Shown piece by piece: positions 12,421 through 42,100 of a stretch of DNA of 64,000 bases. Source of the stretch: an uncultured Verrucomicrobia subdivision 3 bacterium. GTDB lineage: Bacteria; Verrucomicrobiota; Verrucomicrobiia; Limisphaerales; UBA11358. The notes beneath the pieces were generated by a model. The model saw only the letters and a list, made by a program, of their open reading frames with translations, made no database searches and was not told the origin of the DNA. The translations under genes and the position numbers were made by a program. The DNA is taken from contig CAIXFY010000027.1 in NCBI GenBank assembly GCA_903918885.1, positions 1 through 64,000 on the forward strand, in the 5' to 3' direction. How positions within the stretch are numbered: position 1 is the stretch's first letter; each line of letters opens with the position of its first letter.

Positions 12421-13524
12421 TTAATCCTGTGTTTGTTTATGAGGAACAAATGCCGCAACTCGGCGCTGCCCTTCCATAATGCACTCGCGAGACATTCTTG
12501 AAGCAAGAAAGTCCCGATTGTGTGCTGCGTCTTTATCTCCTTGTGCAGCTACAATACTATACCATACATAGGCTTCGAGGTCGCTTTGAGACACGCCCTG
12601 CCCATTTAAGTAGCAAAAGCCAAGGTTAAACTGAGCGTCTGTATAACCTTGGTCAGCGGCTTTACGATACCATTTGGCGGCTTCACTGTAATCTTTGGTC
12701 ACGCCATCTCCTGCATAGTAAGAGACGCCAAGGTTATACTGTGCGTCTGCAAAACCTTGTTCAGCAGCCTTACGACACCATTTGGCGCCTTCAGTAGAAT
12801 CTTTCGCCACACCACGGCCTTTTGCATAACAGACTCCAAGGTTAAACTGTGCGCCTGCGTTACCTTGTTCGGCGGCTTTGCGATACCACGCCACGGCTTC
12901 ACTGTAATCTTTAGTCACGTCATTACCTCTTTCGTAACATGTTCCAAGACTAAATTGCGCTTCTGCAAAACTTTGTTCAGCAGCTTTACGATACCACTTA
13001 ACAGCTTCACTGTAATCTTTTGTCACGCCGTCTCCTGCATAGTAAGAAACGCCAAGGTTATACTGTGCGCCTGCAAAACCTTGTTCTGCAGCCATGCGAT
13101 ACCACTTGGCGGCTTCAGCAGAATCTTTCGCTACACCACGACCTTTTGCATAACAAACACCTAGTTCGCACTGTGCTTCTGCGCAACCTTGGTCAGCAGC
13201 TTTACGATACCATTTGGCAGCTTCATTGAAATCTTTGGTCACGCCGGCACCTGTTTTGAAACAAATTCCAAGATTGCACTGTGCGTATGCATTTCCTTGC
13301 TCAGCAGCTTTGCCATACCATTTGGCAGCTTCGTTATCACTATTGGTCACGCCGCGACCTTTTGCGTAACAGATTCCAAGATTAAACTGAGCGTCTGCGT
13401 CGCCCTTTTCAGCTTTGGCTTTAATGCTCTCAACCGAATTCGTGACGCTTTGTTGTGCGTGCAATTGGACGCTCGAAAACAAAACGAGCAGCAGGAAACC
13501 CGGTGCACACAATTTTATATTCAT
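12421..13524 (-). CDS. Secreted SEL1-like repeat protein (about 8 Sel1 repeats)
   Basis: Signal peptide then 36-aa AAEQG..AQ.NLG.CY..G.GV.KD..EA.KWYRK repeats. Confidence 0.93.
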   Translation of the reverse strand: MNIKLCAPGFLLLVLFSSVQLHAQQSVTNSVESIKAKAEKGDADAQFNLGICYAKGRGVTNSDNEAAKWYGKAAEQGNAYAQCNLGICFKTGAGVTKDFNEAAKWYRKAADQGCAEAQCELGVCYAKGRGVAKDSAEAAKWYRMAAEQGFAGAQYNLGVSYYAGDGVTKDYSEAVKWYRKAAEQSFAEAQFSLGTCYERGNDVTKDYSEAVAWYRKAAEQGNAGAQFNLGVCYAKGRGVAKDSTEGAKWCRKAAEQGFADAQYNLGVSYYAGDGVTKDYSEAAKWYRKAADQGYTDAQFNLGFCYLNGQGVSQSDLEAYVWYSIVAAQGDKDAAHNRDFLASRMSRECIMEGQRRVAAFVPHKQTQD

Positions 13525-14539: not shown

Positions 14540-14917
14540 ATGTCCAACCTGAATGATCCGCTGAAGGAAAGTTACATCGGCAAAGTGGGCGATGCCCTCA
14601 AACCTTACGCCGCCGAACTCACCACCAAGGGTTTTGACCCCGCCGCCCGCATCACGCAGCTCACCGGCGCGGGCGATGTGATCGAAGCCGCCAACAAAAC
14701 GCGCACCGATGCCGAGAATGCGCTCGCCACCGCCGTGGCCAACGAACGCAAGGTGCGGGATGATTTTTATACGCTGGCCGCCGGCACGGTCAGTCTGGTG
14801 GAAGGTGTCTTGGGCAAGGATCATCCGCTGCCCGGCAAGCTCCGCGCCCTGCGGGCGGAACTCATCGGCAACCAAAATCCCGGCGGCACGCCCGCGCCCA
14901 CGCCGCCCGCCAAATAA
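14540..14917 (+). CDS. Small conserved-looking hypothetical protein
   Basis: MSNLNDPLKESYIGKVGDALKPYAAE...; followed by a strong terminator. Confidence 0.6.
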   Translation: MSNLNDPLKESYIGKVGDALKPYAAELTTKGFDPAARITQLTGAGDVIEAANKTRTDAENALATAVANERKVRDDFYTLAAGTVSLVEGVLGKDHPLPGKLRALRAELIGNQNPGGTPAPTPPAK

Positions 14918-14950: not shown

Positions 14951-14981
14951 AACGGCGGTCTCTGACCGCCGTTCTTTTTTT
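14951..14981 (+). terminator. Rho-independent terminator
   Basis: AACGGCGGTC-TCT-GACCGCCGTT followed by CTTTTTTT. Confidence 0.85.
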
Positions 14982-15152: not shown

Positions 15153-15274
15153 TGTCGCGCCCTACCGGCAAAATGGTTTTTGCCGTTAAATCCGGCTCGC
15201 GGGGACGCTCGCCCCACCAAACTGCCTAAAAATCGCCAGATTTGGCAAAAAAGAGGGTTTTTTAGGGAAAAACG

Positions 15275-15505
15275 GCTGGTAGCTTGCCAAATTACCCTGT
15301 CTGTTTGCCAAACAGACTGGTCTGGATGCAAAACGGAACGGGTATTTTGCTATCCGGCCTAGTCTATTTGGCGGGCAACCTTGTCTGGCTGGCAATCCAC
15401 CTTGTCTGTTTGCCGGAATACCTAATCTTTTCTTCCGGCAACCGAGGGCGAATGGCACACGACCGGTTCCGATTGGTGGACGGAAGGTTCTGTTTCCCAT
15501 TTCAC
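15275..15505. repeat. Degenerate 21-bp tandem repeat array (at least 11 units)
   Basis: Consecutive 21-mers such as cctgtctgtttgccaaacaga / ctggtctggatgcaaaacgga / ctagtctatttggcgggcaac / cttgtctggctggcaatccac / cttgtctgtttgccggaatac. Confidence 0.75.
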
Positions 15506-15527
15506 CCGGATTGTCTTTGGGATTGTT

Positions 15528-15712
15528 CGTCCCCGCGGGACAAACGAAAATAGCCCGGCGTTTTAACGCCGGGTGCGCCGCCACAAAAGCCCAAGTCCCA
15601 GCGGGACGACCGAGAGCGTCGGCCGTCCCTCCGGGACTCTGATTCCAACGGCCACCGATACCCGCAGTTGAAACTGCGGGCTATTTTCAATTGCCGCTTT
15701 GCGGCATGGGGA
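15528..15712. repeat. Cluster of further REP-like palindromes (GTCCC.GCGGGAC and CCCG-GCGTTTTAACGC-CGGG / CCCGCAGTTGAAACTGCGGG)
   Basis: Several short inverted repeats; AGTCCCAGCGGGACG and CGTCCCTCCGGGACT occur as an inverted pair. Confidence 0.75.
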
Positions 15713-15803: not shown

Positions 15804-17642
15804 TTACGCCGGCTGGCTGGCGGCTTCCGTCTTCCACGCCTCGATTTTCTCGATGCGGTGGTGGCGCTTGCTCCCGTGCAGTTCAAATTCCACTTCGTCG
15901 CCGACCTTGCGGTTGAGCAGCGCCATCGCGACGGGCGTGAGGTAGCTGATGACGCCCTGGTCGGGATTGGAATCCCACGCGCCGAGAATCGTGAAGGTCT
16001 CGGTCTGGTTGGTCGCGGGATCGGCCACCTGCACAATCGTGCCCGGCCCGACGACATCGGTCTTGGCGTTGGCAAAATCCTGACCGCGCGCGCGATTGAG
16101 CGCGGCTTCGAGGTCTTCCTTCTGGCGCATGAGAATTTTCTGCATTTCCTTCGCGGCCTTGTATTCGTGGTTCTCGCGCAAGTCGCCGTAGCTGCGCGCG
16201 ATGGCGATTTCCTTGGAGTTCGCGGGAATCTTTTTCTCGACGATTTCCTGATACTCGAGTCGGCGGCGTTCGAGGCTTTCCCACGAGACGAGCAGGGCGG
16301 ATTCCTGTTTGGTCTGTTCGCCGCTGACGAGCGATTGCACGGCGGGATGCGCCTTGACGAGCCGCGCGAGCAGCGAACGCTTGTCCATGTCGTCAAACAC
16401 GGGCGACAATTTCAGCGCGCGGGTCAAATCCTTGACCACTTCGATGTCCGCCGTGCCGGTCAGCTCGGCAATCAACGATTGGTCTTCCAGAATAAAATCG
16501 CGCAGGCGGTTTGAGCGTTTTTCGTTGAACTGGTCGCGTTCCATGGCCGTGAGCATCGCGCGGAAAACTTCCGGCCCGAGGATGTCCACGTAATCTTCCG
16601 TGCGTTCGCGGCCGAACCACAGGAGCAATTCGCTGCTCGCCGTGTGCTGGCTGATGAGTTTGGAGAGCGTTTCCTTGAGCAGATTCAAATGGCCGTTGTT
16701 GATGAGAATGCTGGCGACTTCTTTCGCGAGCTTGGCGGAAACCAGATTCAATGCGCCGCGCAGCACGTCCACCCAGCGGTCGGGGTTCGCCGACTTGAAT
16801 GATTCCAAAGCGCGGTGATGTTTCGCGGCGGGAATCGCCTCCAGCAAGGTGCCGAAGCGAATGCCGTCCTGCGACCAGATTTGCGCGGCGGTGATTTGGC
16901 CGTCGGCGGACTGCACGCCGCATGCCGTGCACAATTCGTCGCGCGCAAAAACCGCTTCGAGCGCCACCGCCGGTTGCGTGCGCTGGTGCGAGGCGATGTC
17001 GGGATTGATGGTGGCGAGCACTTCATTCGCCAGCGCCGCCTTGTCTTTCAAATCGGAAACCGATTTGAGCATTTCGGTCAAAACCAGAATGCGCGCCTTC
17101 AAACCTTTCGCCGTGCGGAAATCCGCGAGCAGCCGGTCTTGCAGCGAAGTCTCCTGCGTTTGATAAACGACCGGCTCGGTTTTCTTGAGCGGCACGATGA
17201 AGTGGCCGTCCTTTTTCATTTCGCGCTTGGCGGTTTCCCACCATTTCTTGTAATCATCCGCAATCACGTCCGGCACGAGCACGGACTGAATTTGATCCGA
17301 AGTCGCCTTGCCCCCGAAGCTGTTCAAAATAATTTTGATGAGATCAATGTGATGCGCCGCGAGATGGCGCACGGCGTCGAGGTCGGTCGCCTTGCGCGCG
17401 AGAATGTGATCCTTCGCCACGGGCTTGAGCGATTCGGCCGCGAACGACAAATCCATCGGGTGGCCCGGCTTGCCCGGAAAATCAATCGTGAAGCGCGCGA
17501 ACACCGTGTCTACTGTCTTGATGCGCCCAAAGCCCCAGCTCCGGTGCGTGCAGCAGCCGGCCTCGGCCAGATGCGTCAGGGTCGGAACGTGCTTGCCTTC
17601 AATTTTTCCAGTTGCCGCCAGTTTTTCGAATTCTTCTTTCAT
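15804..17642 (-). CDS. Long GreA/GreB-family transcript cleavage factor with a ~450-aa N-terminal extension
   Basis: C-terminal EIAIARSYGDLRENHEYKAAKEMQKILMRQKEDLE...NQTETFTILGAWDSNPDQGVISYLTPVAMALLNRKVGDEVEF is GreA-like; N-terminus resembles the long chlamydial GreA layout. Confidence 0.85.
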   Translation of the reverse strand: MKEEFEKLAATGKIEGKHVPTLTHLAEAGCCTHRSWGFGRIKTVDTVFARFTIDFPGKPGHPMDLSFAAESLKPVAKDHILARKATDLDAVRHLAAHHIDLIKIILNSFGGKATSDQIQSVLVPDVIADDYKKWWETAKREMKKDGHFIVPLKKTEPVVYQTQETSLQDRLLADFRTAKGLKARILVLTEMLKSVSDLKDKAALANEVLATINPDIASHQRTQPAVALEAVFARDELCTACGVQSADGQITAAQIWSQDGIRFGTLLEAIPAAKHHRALESFKSANPDRWVDVLRGALNLVSAKLAKEVASILINNGHLNLLKETLSKLISQHTASSELLLWFGRERTEDYVDILGPEVFRAMLTAMERDQFNEKRSNRLRDFILEDQSLIAELTGTADIEVVKDLTRALKLSPVFDDMDKRSLLARLVKAHPAVQSLVSGEQTKQESALLVSWESLERRRLEYQEIVEKKIPANSKEIAIARSYGDLRENHEYKAAKEMQKILMRQKEDLEAALNRARGQDFANAKTDVVGPGTIVQVADPATNQTETFTILGAWDSNPDQGVISYLTPVAMALLNRKVGDEVEFELHGSKRHHRIEKIEAWKTEAASQPA

Positions 17643-17688
17643 AAAATTTTTTATCTCGCTTCGCGCAAGATGAATCTCTTTATTAAAG

Positions 17689-19047
17689 TTGTTGAACGAC
17701 CAAAATCCAAGACAAATTGCGGCGCGAGTTCTGTCGCAACGCCTCACCAGCGGCGAATATACCGAGAATCTCCTCGACATCGCCCTCGCCGCCGCGCGGC
17801 TTTCGCCCGTGGATCGAGGGCTTTGTCACGAACTCGTCTGCGGCGTCGTGCGCTGGCAGAAGACGCTCGACGCGCTGATCGAACGCAAGACCGACCCCAA
17901 GCGCGAGCTGCGCCCGGCTCTGCGAAACCTGCTGCGCCTCGGCCTCTACCAGATTTTTTTCCTCGACCGCATTCCGCCGCACGCCGCCGTCCATGAGACC
18001 GTCGAGGAAGCCAAGCGCGCCGGTTATCATTCGCAGGCCGGACTCATCAACGCCATCCTGCGCGCGTATCTGCGCGAGACCGACGAGATAAAAAAAATCC
18101 TCGCCGACATGAAAATTTCCCAGCCCGCGCTCGGTTGGTCGCACCCCGGCTGGCTGGTGGAGAAATGGCGGAAAAATTTCGGCGACGCGAATACGCTGAA
18201 ATTGCTCGAGTGGAACAATACGCCGCCGAAAACCTTCGCCCGCGTGAACACGCTGAAAACCGATGCCGCCAAACTCACCGAACGCTGGCGCGAGGAAAAT
18301 GTGGAATGCGATTTTGTGCGCCGCGATTTTCTCGGTAGGGCGGGCAGTCCTCTGCCCGCCGACGGCGCGCACGGAGTGACGCGCCCTACTGATTTTGAAA
18401 ATCTCGCCTTTGAATTGAAATCGCATCCGCCCTTGAATTCATTGGGTAGTTTGCGTGACGGCTGGTTTTATCTGCAAGACCCCAGCACGCTGGTTGCGCC
18501 CGCTTTGCTTGCGCCGCAAGCCGGCGAAACGGTTTGGGACGCGTGCGCCGCGCCCGGCGGCAAGACGACTTTTCTCGCGCAGTTGATGAACAACCACGGC
18601 AAAATCGTCGCGAGCGATTTGGATGCGAACCGTCTGAAACTCGTCAAAGAAAATTGCACCCGGCTTGGCGCGGCCTGCGTTGAAATCTTGCCGTCCTCCA
18701 CCGTCAATTCGCGGACGCTCGCCAAATTTGACCGGATTTTGATCGACGCGCCGTGCTCGAACACCGGCGTGCTGCGTCGGCGCGTGGATTTGCGCTGGCG
18801 CATTCAGGCGGCGGAAATCGAGCGTCTCCGCGCCACGCAACTGGATTTGCTCAATCATGCCGCGACGAAACTGAAGCCTGGCGGCGTCATCGTTTACAGC
18901 ACTTGCAGTCTGGAGCCGGAAGAAAATTCGGAAGTCGTGAAAGAATTTCTCGCGGCCAATCCGAATTTCAAGCTGGAAAGCGAACGCCAGTTGCTGCCGT
19001 TTGACGACGGCGTGGACGGCGCGTATGTTGCGCGGCTGAAAAACTGA
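17689..19047 (+). CDS. rsmB: 16S rRNA (cytosine-C5)-methyltransferase RsmB-like (NusB-like N-terminus)
   Basis: WDACAAPGGKTTFLAQLM; DAPCSNTGVLRRRVDLRW; VYSTCSLEPEENSEVV. Confidence 0.93.
   Translation: MLNDQNPRQIAARVLSQRLTSGEYTENLLDIALAAARLSPVDRGLCHELVCGVVRWQKTLDALIERKTDPKRELRPALRNLLRLGLYQIFFLDRIPPHAAVHETVEEAKRAGYHSQAGLINAILRAYLRETDEIKKILADMKISQPALGWSHPGWLVEKWRKNFGDANTLKLLEWNNTPPKTFARVNTLKTDAAKLTERWREENVECDFVRRDFLGRAGSPLPADGAHGVTRPTDFENLAFELKSHPPLNSLGSLRDGWFYLQDPSTLVAPALLAPQAGETVWDACAAPGGKTTFLAQLMNNHGKIVASDLDANRLKLVKENCTRLGAACVEILPSSTVNSRTLAKFDRILIDAPCSNTGVLRRRVDLRWRIQAAEIERLRATQLDLLNHAATKLKPGGVIVYSTCSLEPEENSEVVKEFLAANPNFKLESERQLLPFDDGVDGAYVARLKN
18335..18389 (+). repeat. 55-bp palindromic element inside rsmB (copy 1)
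   Basis: GTAGGGCGGGCAGTCCTCTGCCCGCCGACGGCGCGCACGGAGTGACGCGCCCTAC; 54/55 identical to the copy in mfd. Confidence 0.9.
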
Positions 19048-39154: not shown

Positions 39155-42100
39155 TCAGGGTGAAACTATCCGGTAATACCGGTTTAAAAAATTACTGGCG
39201 AGATTGTCGGTGAAGCTGAAATTTCCGAGCGTGAACGAGCTGGTGACAATTGCTGTCCAGTTAGAGAAGGGAAGGCTGAGGTTGGTGGTGCTAAAGATGC
39301 GGTAGACTTGTCCGGTCGGACCGATGCCGGATAAAGAGAATCCATTGGTCAGGCTAAAACCGGAGTTCGTGAATTGCGGAGGAACAGCGGACGCGATGTT
39401 CAACGTGTTCGTCGCACTGCCTTGATAGATTGGATCGCTGATGATTCCGATGACAGTGTAATTTCCCACATTCGTCGGCGCGCTGGTTGAACCGTTGTAA
39501 GTGACATTCACTATCAAACCTGACGGAACGGTGGAGATGGCTACGCTCTTGGCAGCGCCGTCATAAGTTTGAACGAGATTGCTGAACGAGATTGCTCCCG
39601 CCACGCGGGCAAAAGGTCCGACATCGTTCGTCGTCAGAAAATGCGCGGTGACGGGCGCACTGGAAAATTCATCGGCGCCGATATCTGCGCCGGTGAGGGG
39701 GCGCGGTTGACCGTCCATGTCTACTAGCACATTCGTGAATCCCGCCGCCGCTGCACCGATGGCGGGGCTGGTGGACTGGAGATGCAGAATGCCGTAGGCG
39801 TCCGCGAAGGTCACAAGTGGGTTGGTAATCGTATAAGTGCCTGCGGGCATGATACCGGCGTGGGTGTTGGCGACCGTGGTGTTCCAAATGATATTGTTAG
39901 TCCAGACTCCGTTCGTGAAAAAGCCGGACGACGCCTGTGATAAATCAAAAGCGTTGGCGCTGCCCACGATGATGTTGTTCGCGATCGTATTGCTCTGTGC
40001 GCCGTAAATGTCGGAACCATTTTGGTAAATCTGATACGCATTGTTGATGAGCGTGTTGAACGCAATCACATTGTATCTCGGCTCAACGTGCGTGGCGTTG
40101 CCGTAGTCCAGCACGTTGGTGTCGCCCGGACCGATTTGAATCGCGCCGCCGCCGTTGCCGCAGTTGACAAAATAATTGTCGTAGATTTTGTGGTAATAGC
40201 TCCAGACCACCAACCCCAGCGTGTTGGAAAAACAATTGCCGTAAATCCAGCAGTTGGTGCTCTCGCGGATTTTGAAATAGTTGTGGTAGTTGTTGAGAAC
40301 GGTGTTGAAGCGATAGGTGTTGTTGCAGGACTTGTTGGAAAGCATTTCCGCGGAGTCGCCGTCGCAACGGTCGAAAAGATTATATTCCATCAGGCCGTAG
40401 CCGGACGAAGCCGAGTAGGTTCCCAATCCCCAACGCACCGTCTCGCCACCATTCAAGCCGTTTTGATAAACGTTATCATGAAAATAGTTGTGGTGTATCC
40501 ACACGCGTTGGGCGATGGGATTGTTCACGGTGGCCGAGTTGGTGACAGAGCCTTCGACTTTAACCATCTGGCCCAGCGAGTTTTTATTGCGAACCTCGTT
40601 GTAGTCGAACTGTGCGTCATCCCCGGCTAGCTTGAGATACCAAAACCCGGTCGGGTCGCCGTTGGTAATGGTGCATTGGATGACGTTGCGCGATAGCCGG
40701 CAATGACTCGTGCCATATTCAATCTGCAACTGGCTACCCGCGTTGGTGAAAACAAATCCTTGCGCGGTCACCCACGCCGCCGGAGATTGGAAGTCAAAAC
40801 TGTAATTGCCGCCAATCGTCGCGCCACCGATGGTTTGAGCCTTGATTAAAATCGGAGCGTTGGAAGTTCCGACGCAAGTGACCAGAAGCGTGCTGCTGGT
40901 GACATAGATGCCGTTCGACAAGATTATGGTGTCGCCTGGTTGGGCGTTATTGATGGCCGTTTGCAGCGCGGACAAAGTGCCCACGGTATTGCCAACGGTC
41001 AGCGTTGCGGCGGCGGACGTGGCTGGCGAACAACTGCCGCTGACCACGCAACGGTATTGAAAGCCGTTCATCGCCGTCGTCACGTTCGTGGTGGTTAAGC
41101 TTGCCGTGCCGCCGCCCGTGCCATCCGCACCGATGACATTCACAAATCCGCTGCCTTTGTTCAACTGCCATTGATACGAAGCCGCATTGACAGCGGCGAC
41201 GGTGAAAGTCGCTTGAGAGCCGATGTTTTTGGTTACGCTGGCCGGTGAACTGGTGACAGCGGGTGCGTTGGTGGGCTTAACGCCCGCGCTGTCTGCGGAT
41301 TTGACGCTTTCACTGCACAACACCGAAGACACGGCATAAATATACGTTGTGCCGTTCAACAGGTTGGTATTGTCCGAATCGAGATAATTCGTCGCCGTTG
41401 TATTGGCGATGGCTGAACCGTAGCTCCCGCCGCTCGCTTTGCGATAAATATTATAACTGACAGCATTACTCGTAGCATTCCAGGTTAGAGATACCGGGCC
41501 ACAACTCGAAGCGATAATGGAAATAATGCTCGGCGTCAGCGGGGGATCGCAGACAAGATATGAAATGGAAATCTGCCCCGTCGCTCCGCTACCGCCAATG
41601 TTTAATGAATTGGAGCTACTTGCCCTAGCCCCACCACCGCCACCGCTGGGAGCAAAACCATTGGTGCCATTGCCGTTTGCGTTTGCACCGCCGCCCCCAG
41701 CTCCACCACCGCTGATGCCTCCTAGGCCACCAAAGTTGTTGGTAGCGTTACTGCCGCTGTTGGCGTTGCCAGCGCCGCCGCCGCCGCCGCCGCCGTAGCT
41801 GCCCAGCAAACCAGCTGCGCCATTGCCCCCGGCAAAAATAAAACCCACGTCGCCGACACATCCGTTGGTTCCGCTCATCCCATTGGTTCCGGCGGTGGAA
41901 CTGGCTGGATTGATGATACTGACCCCACCGGCACCACCAGCAGCAACAATCGTGACCCCGCCGTCGCCGGTAAAGCTTGTGTTTGTCCCAGCCACAGTAA
42001 TTCCGTTGTTGGTCGAGCTGATGCCCCCGGCACCGACGACAAAGCTGTAGGAATTTCCTGGAGTTACGGCCACCGTCACCATTTTTGCATAGCTACCGCC

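What the first reader, a model, noticed from the sequence alone, without database searches (positions are those of the whole stretch)
15275..15505. Degenerate 21-bp tandem array in a long intergenic region
From 15275 to 15505 the sequence can be cut into eleven consecutive 21-mers sharing roughly cTtGTCTGtTTGCC(a/g)..... ac; degenerate traces extend to about 15212 and 15526. 21 bp is about two helical turns, so any bound protein or bend would be phased on one face. 21 is also 7 codons, so both strands stay open: the minus ORF 15186-15584 reads as a heptad repeat (RLGIPAN RQGGLPA RQGCPPN RLGRIAK ... RPVCLAN RQGNLAS). I cannot tell whether this is DNA architecture, an RNA or a repeat protein.
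Basis: seen in the sequence. Interest (0 to 1): 0.78.

Follow-up and report, generated by a model that had tools for sequence, protein, structure and literature searches.

The report
Helically phased palindromic 21-bp DNA arrays
An intergenic stretch of a Verrucomicrobia genome holds a real, non-coding train of 21-bp mirror-symmetric units, one of many such arrays in its genus that share the spacing (two DNA turns) but not the sequence, which points to a little-known kind of mobile or protein-bound repeat.

Summary
The array is real: lag-21 identity is 0.50 against 0.25 in shuffles (0 of 3000). It is also not alone. In 1.7 Mb sampled from the same genus, nearly all non-coding tandem repeats with units of 15 bp or more have period 21, and each array or family has its own unit sequence. 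The units are two-fold symmetric: 10-11 bp half-sites alternate in orientation. Half-site variants are shared between orientations, but the two arms of a unit do not co-vary.

Coding is rejected: a homologue in another species and dispersed copies of a sister array show equal change at all codon positions and dN/dS about 1. Substitutions are many, yet gaps inside the arrays are multiples of 21 bp; neighbouring intergenic DNA of the same species pair has many irregular gaps. So phase is kept while sequence drifts. Some sister arrays are dispersed within one species and absent from the other 48 sampled genomes of the genus, which suggests MITE-like mobility.

Best reading: a non-coding, mobile-type array of phased half-sites, probably bound on one DNA face by a symmetric protein. 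A purely mutational minisatellite is the main rival. No protein partner was found.

The parts
15275..15505 (.). Core array: eleven in-phase 21-bp units, consensus C..GTCtGtTTGcCa.aC.aC, two-fold symmetric
15212..15274 (.). Degenerate left extension in the same phase; the edge AACTGCCTAAAAATCGCCAG at 15220 is shared with the homologue in G009
15506..15526 (.). Degenerate right extension (last recognisable unit)
15296..15320 (.). Best single palindrome of the array, CCTGTCTGTTTG-C-CAAACAGACTGG, two half-sites facing each other
15198..15226 (+). Left-flanking dispersed REP-like element CGGCTCGCGGGGACGCTCGCCCCACC; other copies in the genome, several as inverted doublets; outside the array
15528..15573 (-). 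Right-flanking stem-loop resembling Acido-Lenti-1 RNA (33.6 bits, below the gathering score 37)
14540..14917 (+). Left neighbour: small gene of unknown family (125 aa) whose 3' end, with terminator-like hairpin 14951-14973, faces the array
15804..17780 (-). Right neighbour: 658-aa protein with C-terminal GreA/GreB domains; its 3' end faces the array (convergent pair)

Best explanation
SHOWN: the feature is a non-coding DNA array of about 10.5-bp half-sites that alternate in orientation, so that each 21-bp unit is a two-fold-symmetric site exactly two helical turns long. It belongs to a class of such arrays in this genus. Each array or family has a private unit sequence. In compared copies arrays gain or lose whole 21-bp units, and some families are dispersed in several copies within one species. 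INFERRED: the arrays are bodies of small non-autonomous (MITE-like) mobile elements, and the half-sites are binding sites for a cognate symmetric DNA-binding protein (transposase or recombinase type) that contacts one face of the helix. This would explain why spacing is kept while sequence drifts, why half-site variants are shared between orientations, and why each family has its own sequence. Unit duplication and copying between inverted arms during replication would generate the variation.
For: Period 21 real. Same period in unrelated arrays across the genus; TRF on 1.73 Mb gives only 21, 22 and 23 among non-coding repeats of period 15 or more. Two-fold symmetry against a column-permuted null, p < 0.02 in 10 of 12 arrays of the first set, with further cases. 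Half-site variants shared between orientations, p < 0.01 in 6 of 10 arrays. Phase kept: window vs G009 80 mismatches and one 21-bp gap (plus one terminal base), control intergenic 39 mismatches and 8 irregular gaps; dispersed G018 copies differ by exactly 21, 42 and 21 bp. Not coding. Dispersed, species-private families: six other places in G018, three other contigs in G017, none in the other 48 sampled genomes; shared flanks beyond the array.
Against: No cognate protein or adjacent transposase found. Terminal inverted repeats only weakly suggested in one family; target duplications not tested. No common A+T or purine profile across arrays, so one shared protein for all is unlikely. The window array is single-copy in its own genome. 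Symmetry not significant in own-genome arrays C66 and C34. Gap counts depend partly on the gap penalty: weak penalties split the one 21-bp gap into several short ones.
Confidence: 0.43

Rival explanations
1. A mutational minisatellite with no bound protein. Tandem duplication makes 21-bp arrays; replication template switching between inverted arms makes and spreads palindromic half-sites; recombination removes or adds whole units and occasionally copies the array elsewhere.
For: Private sequences and no conserved position: of 23 greA-type loci of relatives examined only L088 has an array, with units unrelated to the window's. Variants shared between orientations. The array diverges about twice as much as nearby intergenic DNA of the same species pair (0.31 vs 0.16) with mild clustering of changes (p = 0.036). 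The exact-copy own-genome array on C34 is not significantly palindromic, as expected if symmetry builds up with time. Template switching is an established mechanism that homogenises inverted-repeat arms (PMC7202029, PMC8794818).
Against: Does not by itself explain why unrelated arrays share exactly 21 bp or why non-unit indels are absent. Dispersed copies with shared flanks need a mover.
Confidence: 0.35
2. An RNA element: the array is transcribed in the 3' region of neighbouring genes and works as a train of hairpins (termination or mRNA end protection).
For: Both strands fold better than shuffles in most arrays, z about -2 to -10; the window array lies between two gene 3' ends; terminator-like sites are enriched in the region, though mostly in flanking stem-loops.
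Against: Arms do not co-vary within units; two arrays show no folding excess; the array on own contig C66 sits on the 5' side of pheT; strict 21-nt phase is not needed for RNA hairpins; no Rfam match inside the array at a meaningful score.
Confidence: 0.13
3. A coding heptad-repeat protein on one strand.
For: Open frame 15186-15584 on the minus strand; several sister arrays have open frames. One sister array (L157) gives a coiled-coil-like translation with weak Pfam hits.
Against: dN/dS 0.69-1.05 in all frames and stops in every homologue frame; the open frame of the G018 family has pN/pS 1.00 with changes 19/18/17 over codon positions; GC by codon position of the window frame is 0.57/0.61/0.49, unlike genes nearby; no Pfam match for the window frames.
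Confidence: 0.03

Closest known systems
BrickBuilt, a minisatellite inside a MITE of Porphyromonas gingivalis (PMC4596501)
   Same: Dispersed, non-coding element whose body is a tandem array of short units (23 nt) that varies in unit number between copies
   Different: One family in one species with recognisable TIRs; here several unrelated families share period 21, units are two-fold symmetric, TIRs are uncertain
REP / BIME elements (PMC3733652)
   Same: Intergenic palindromic units of 20-40 bp, sometimes in alternating orientation and clustered; also reported from Verrucomicrobia
   Different: REPs share one sequence (GTAG or CGTC tag) across a genome and lie at variable spacing; here sequence is private to each array or family and spacing is fixed at 21 bp
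Bacterial VNTR minisatellites
   Same: Head-to-tail units, whole-unit copy-number differences
   Different: Units only about 50-60% alike yet without phase loss; fixed helical period across unrelated arrays; two-fold symmetry
Transposase-binding site arrays of large transposons (Tn7 ends, En/Spm subterminal repeats; from own knowledge)
   Same: Would work alike: repeated sites of one to two helical turns, some in alternating orientation, private to each transposon family
   Different: No transposase, no clear ends shown here; resemblance is from memory and untested
Intergenic helical (about 11 bp) AA/TT periodicity of E. coli (PMC516772)
   Same: Intergenic signal near the helical repeat
   Different: That is a weak AA/TT curvature signal; these arrays repeat whole 21-mers and do not share curvature or an A+T profile

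Membership tests
Minisatellite / VNTR | Tandem head-to-tail units | tested here: met
   lag 21, 42, 63 identity 0.50, 0.42, 0.52
Minisatellite / VNTR | Copy-number change in whole units | tested here: met
   gaps of 21, 21, 42, 21 bp between homologous copies
MITE with internal minisatellite (BrickBuilt-like) | Several dispersed copies in one genome | tested here: inconclusive
   Met for sister families in G018 and G017; the window array itself is single-copy in G000
MITE with internal minisatellite (BrickBuilt-like) | Terminal inverted repeats | tested here: inconclusive
   shared flanks of the G018 family with imperfect matching ends (AAGCC...TTTT..CC and its reverse complement, by eye); none seen for the window array
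MITE with internal minisatellite (BrickBuilt-like) | Target-site duplications and empty sites | not tested
REP / BIME | One palindromic sequence family with a constant tag across the genome | tested here: not met
   Different unit consensus in each array; the unit motif is no more common in the genome than its reversed control (17 vs 19)
Coding heptad-repeat gene | Purifying selection on codons | tested here: not met
   dN/dS about 1, no codon-position bias, stops in homologue
Structured RNA | Compensatory change between paired arms | tested here: not met
   within-unit pairing no better than arms shuffled between units in most arrays (one centre at p = 0.002, one at 0.011)
Intrinsically curved DNA | Curvature above shuffled sequence | tested here: not met
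   window array z = -0.7; raised only in some others
Transposase-bound array | Cognate protein binding | not testable with these tools
   No transposase seen among nearby genes listed; needs biochemistry

The most novel reading that the evidence does not exclude
A so far undescribed class of bacterial repeat in which geometry, not sequence, is what is kept: species-private, mobile families of two-fold-symmetric half-sites on a strict 21-bp (two-turn) lattice, each bound by its own symmetric protein.
Probability: 0.33. Interest if true: 0.82.

Novelty: new variant of a known kind. Interest (0 to 1): 0.64.

Why it matters
Repeat searches look for conserved sequence, and Tandem Repeats Finder missed the window array. 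If many lineages carry repeats that keep only helical spacing and mirror symmetry, part of bacterial intergenic DNA has an unrecognised organising rule. The uniform 21-bp period and the gap spectrum in multiples of 21 make it directly testable whether a protein lattice or a mutational process sets a repeat length.

Tried and rejected
Coding reading: rejected. Curvature: no shared excess. A common A+T or purine pattern around the dyads: none. RNA hairpins with compensatory arms: not supported. Match to phages or plasmids: none. Rfam: only sub-threshold hits, the best outside the array. Position conserved near greA: of 23 relatives' loci only L088 carries an array, with unrelated units; the G009 greA locus and the G000 locus of the gene beside the G009 array have none nearby. 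Paper searches for 21-bp or helically phased intergenic arrays, and for Verrucomicrobia repeats, found no description.

Full report
OBSERVATION. The eleven 21-mers at 15275-15505 are there, in one unbroken phase. Identity at lag 21 is 0.50 against 0.25 in dinucleotide shuffles (0 of 3000), and no other 210-bp stretch of the window scores higher at any lag from 12 to 60. TRF misses it. It lies between two convergent gene 3' ends: a 125-aa protein of unknown family and a 658-aa protein ending in GreA/GreB domains. The region also holds REP-like stem-loops and two sub-threshold Acido-Lenti-1-like hairpins.

IT IS ONE OF A CLASS. The window is contig 27 of a genome (G000) whose nearest greA relatives are Verrucomicrobia subdivision 3 / Limisphaerales MAGs. 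A lag scan of stretches from this genome and its genus found further period-21 arrays with unrelated units: own contigs C66, C34 and C30; G009 (two, one of them the homologue described below); G016; G017; G018 (five); and a named relative, L088, beside the same greA-type gene. A 41-bp array lies on own contig C40, a 22-bp array in G020, and 41/42-bp arrays of palindromes in G029 of another family. TRF on 1.73 Mb of the genus lists, for non-coding repeats with period 15 or more, only 21 (7 rows), 22 and 23. In other families sampled, lag-21 hits mostly lie in long reading frames or are multiples of 7-bp simple repeats. Some arrays (G009 C8, own C66 and C34) were found through searches, so counts are not a fair census; density clearly varies (none in 294 kb of G001, five in 131 kb of G018). 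The non-coding filter is rough, and two of the G018 and G009 arrays (L187, L151) lie in regions whose coding status is less clear.

ANATOMY. Against a null that permutes the 21 columns, reverse-complement symmetry is significant (p < 0.02) in 10 of 12 arrays, including the window array (0.006); more cases. The centres are 10 and 11 bp apart, so the array is a row of half-sites in alternating orientation. Arms of one unit do not match each other better than arms of different units, so these are not conserved hairpins. Half-site variants recur in both orientations more than column shuffling allows (window p < 0.001). No curvature, A+T or purine pattern is common to the arrays.

NOT CODING. The window array has a homologue in G009 (78% over 131 bp). 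Over 287 aligned bases (67% identity) changes are equal at the three codon positions, dN/dS is 0.69-1.05 in all frames, and every frame of the homologue has stops. In G018 the one frame open in both compared copies has pN/pS 1.00.

PHASE IS KEPT, SEQUENCE IS NOT. With ordinary gap penalties the window-G009 alignment has 80 mismatches, one gap of exactly 21 bp and one terminal base; intergenic DNA beside greA in the same two genomes has 39 mismatches and 8 irregular gaps. Very low gap penalties split the 21-bp gap into short pieces, so the count depends on alignment settings; the unbroken phase within each array does not. Copies of the G018 array differ by 21, 42 and 21 bp, with one further 1-bp gap near the array edge, against 21-31 mismatches.

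DISPERSAL. One G018 array has copies at six other places in G018 (C22, C24, C35, two on C37, C67) and none in the other 48 sampled genomes of the genus; a G017 array has copies on three other contigs of G017 only; a second G018 array has one further good copy, 21 bp shorter. A third G018 array has a homologue in G013, itself a long in-phase symmetric array. Copies of the first family share about 75 bp of left and 45 bp of right flank with possible imperfect terminal inverted repeats. Arrays cluster near contig ends (5 of 12 within 500 bp, expected 1.6% of sequence), as repeated DNA would. The window array is single-copy in its genome, and the G009 homologue lies beside a different gene. That fits mobility but could also be a rearrangement, since a sequence that looks like an IS lies nearby in G009 (identified by reading, not by a family search).

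MECHANISM. Phase conservation without sequence or codon conservation argues for a DNA-level constraint tied to the helix. Dispersal and private sequences argue for mobile families, each perhaps with its own binding protein, as transposon ends have. Inverted-arm copying by template switching, known in E. coli and elsewhere (PMC7202029, PMC8794818), would supply the shared half-site variants. Binding protein and mover are inferred; neither was found. A purely mutational origin remains a serious rival.

COMPARISON. The nearest described element is BrickBuilt, a 23-nt minisatellite inside a MITE (PMC4596501). REP/BIME elements (PMC3733652) share palindromy and location but not the private sequence and strict spacing. 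The library searched held no description of such a class; that library lacks most subscription papers, so novelty is provisional.

Noticed in passing
window 15528-15573 (-) and 15661-15706 (+): Two stem-loops resembling Acido-Lenti-1 RNA (RF01687), 33-34 bits, just below the gathering score, one on each strand beside the array.
   Followed up: no
window 15198-15226; L002, L005, L006: A 26-30 bp REP-like sequence (CGGCTCGCGGGGACGCTCGCCCCACC) with 12 other matches in the genome, several as inverted doublets about 20 bp apart.
   Followed up: no
own contig C66 39040-39089, ~39588-39638 and 39901-39955 (L127): A ~52-bp piece of the pheT start region is repeated three times near pheT, on both sides of the C66 array; similar extra copies occur in G016, G041, G047 and others.
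   Followed up: no
window 12421-13524 (-): A 367-aa protein of 36-residue repeats (108-bp tandem array, Sel1-like by eye).
   Followed up: no
L118 1341-1668 (own contig C40); G029 L172 1582-1745 and 13955-14290, L173 11564-11727: Arrays with period 41-42 bp (four helical turns); those of G029 consist of palindromes about 20.5-21 bp apart.
   Followed up: partly
L145, L190, L215, L223: Heptamer simple repeats (period 7/14) occur in several genomes of the order; different in kind from the 21-bp arrays.
   Followed up: no
window 15804-17780 (-): GreA/GreB domains at the end of a 658-aa protein with a long N-terminal part, like the 'transcript cleavage factor/unknown domain fusion' models, well below their cut-offs.
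   Followed up: no
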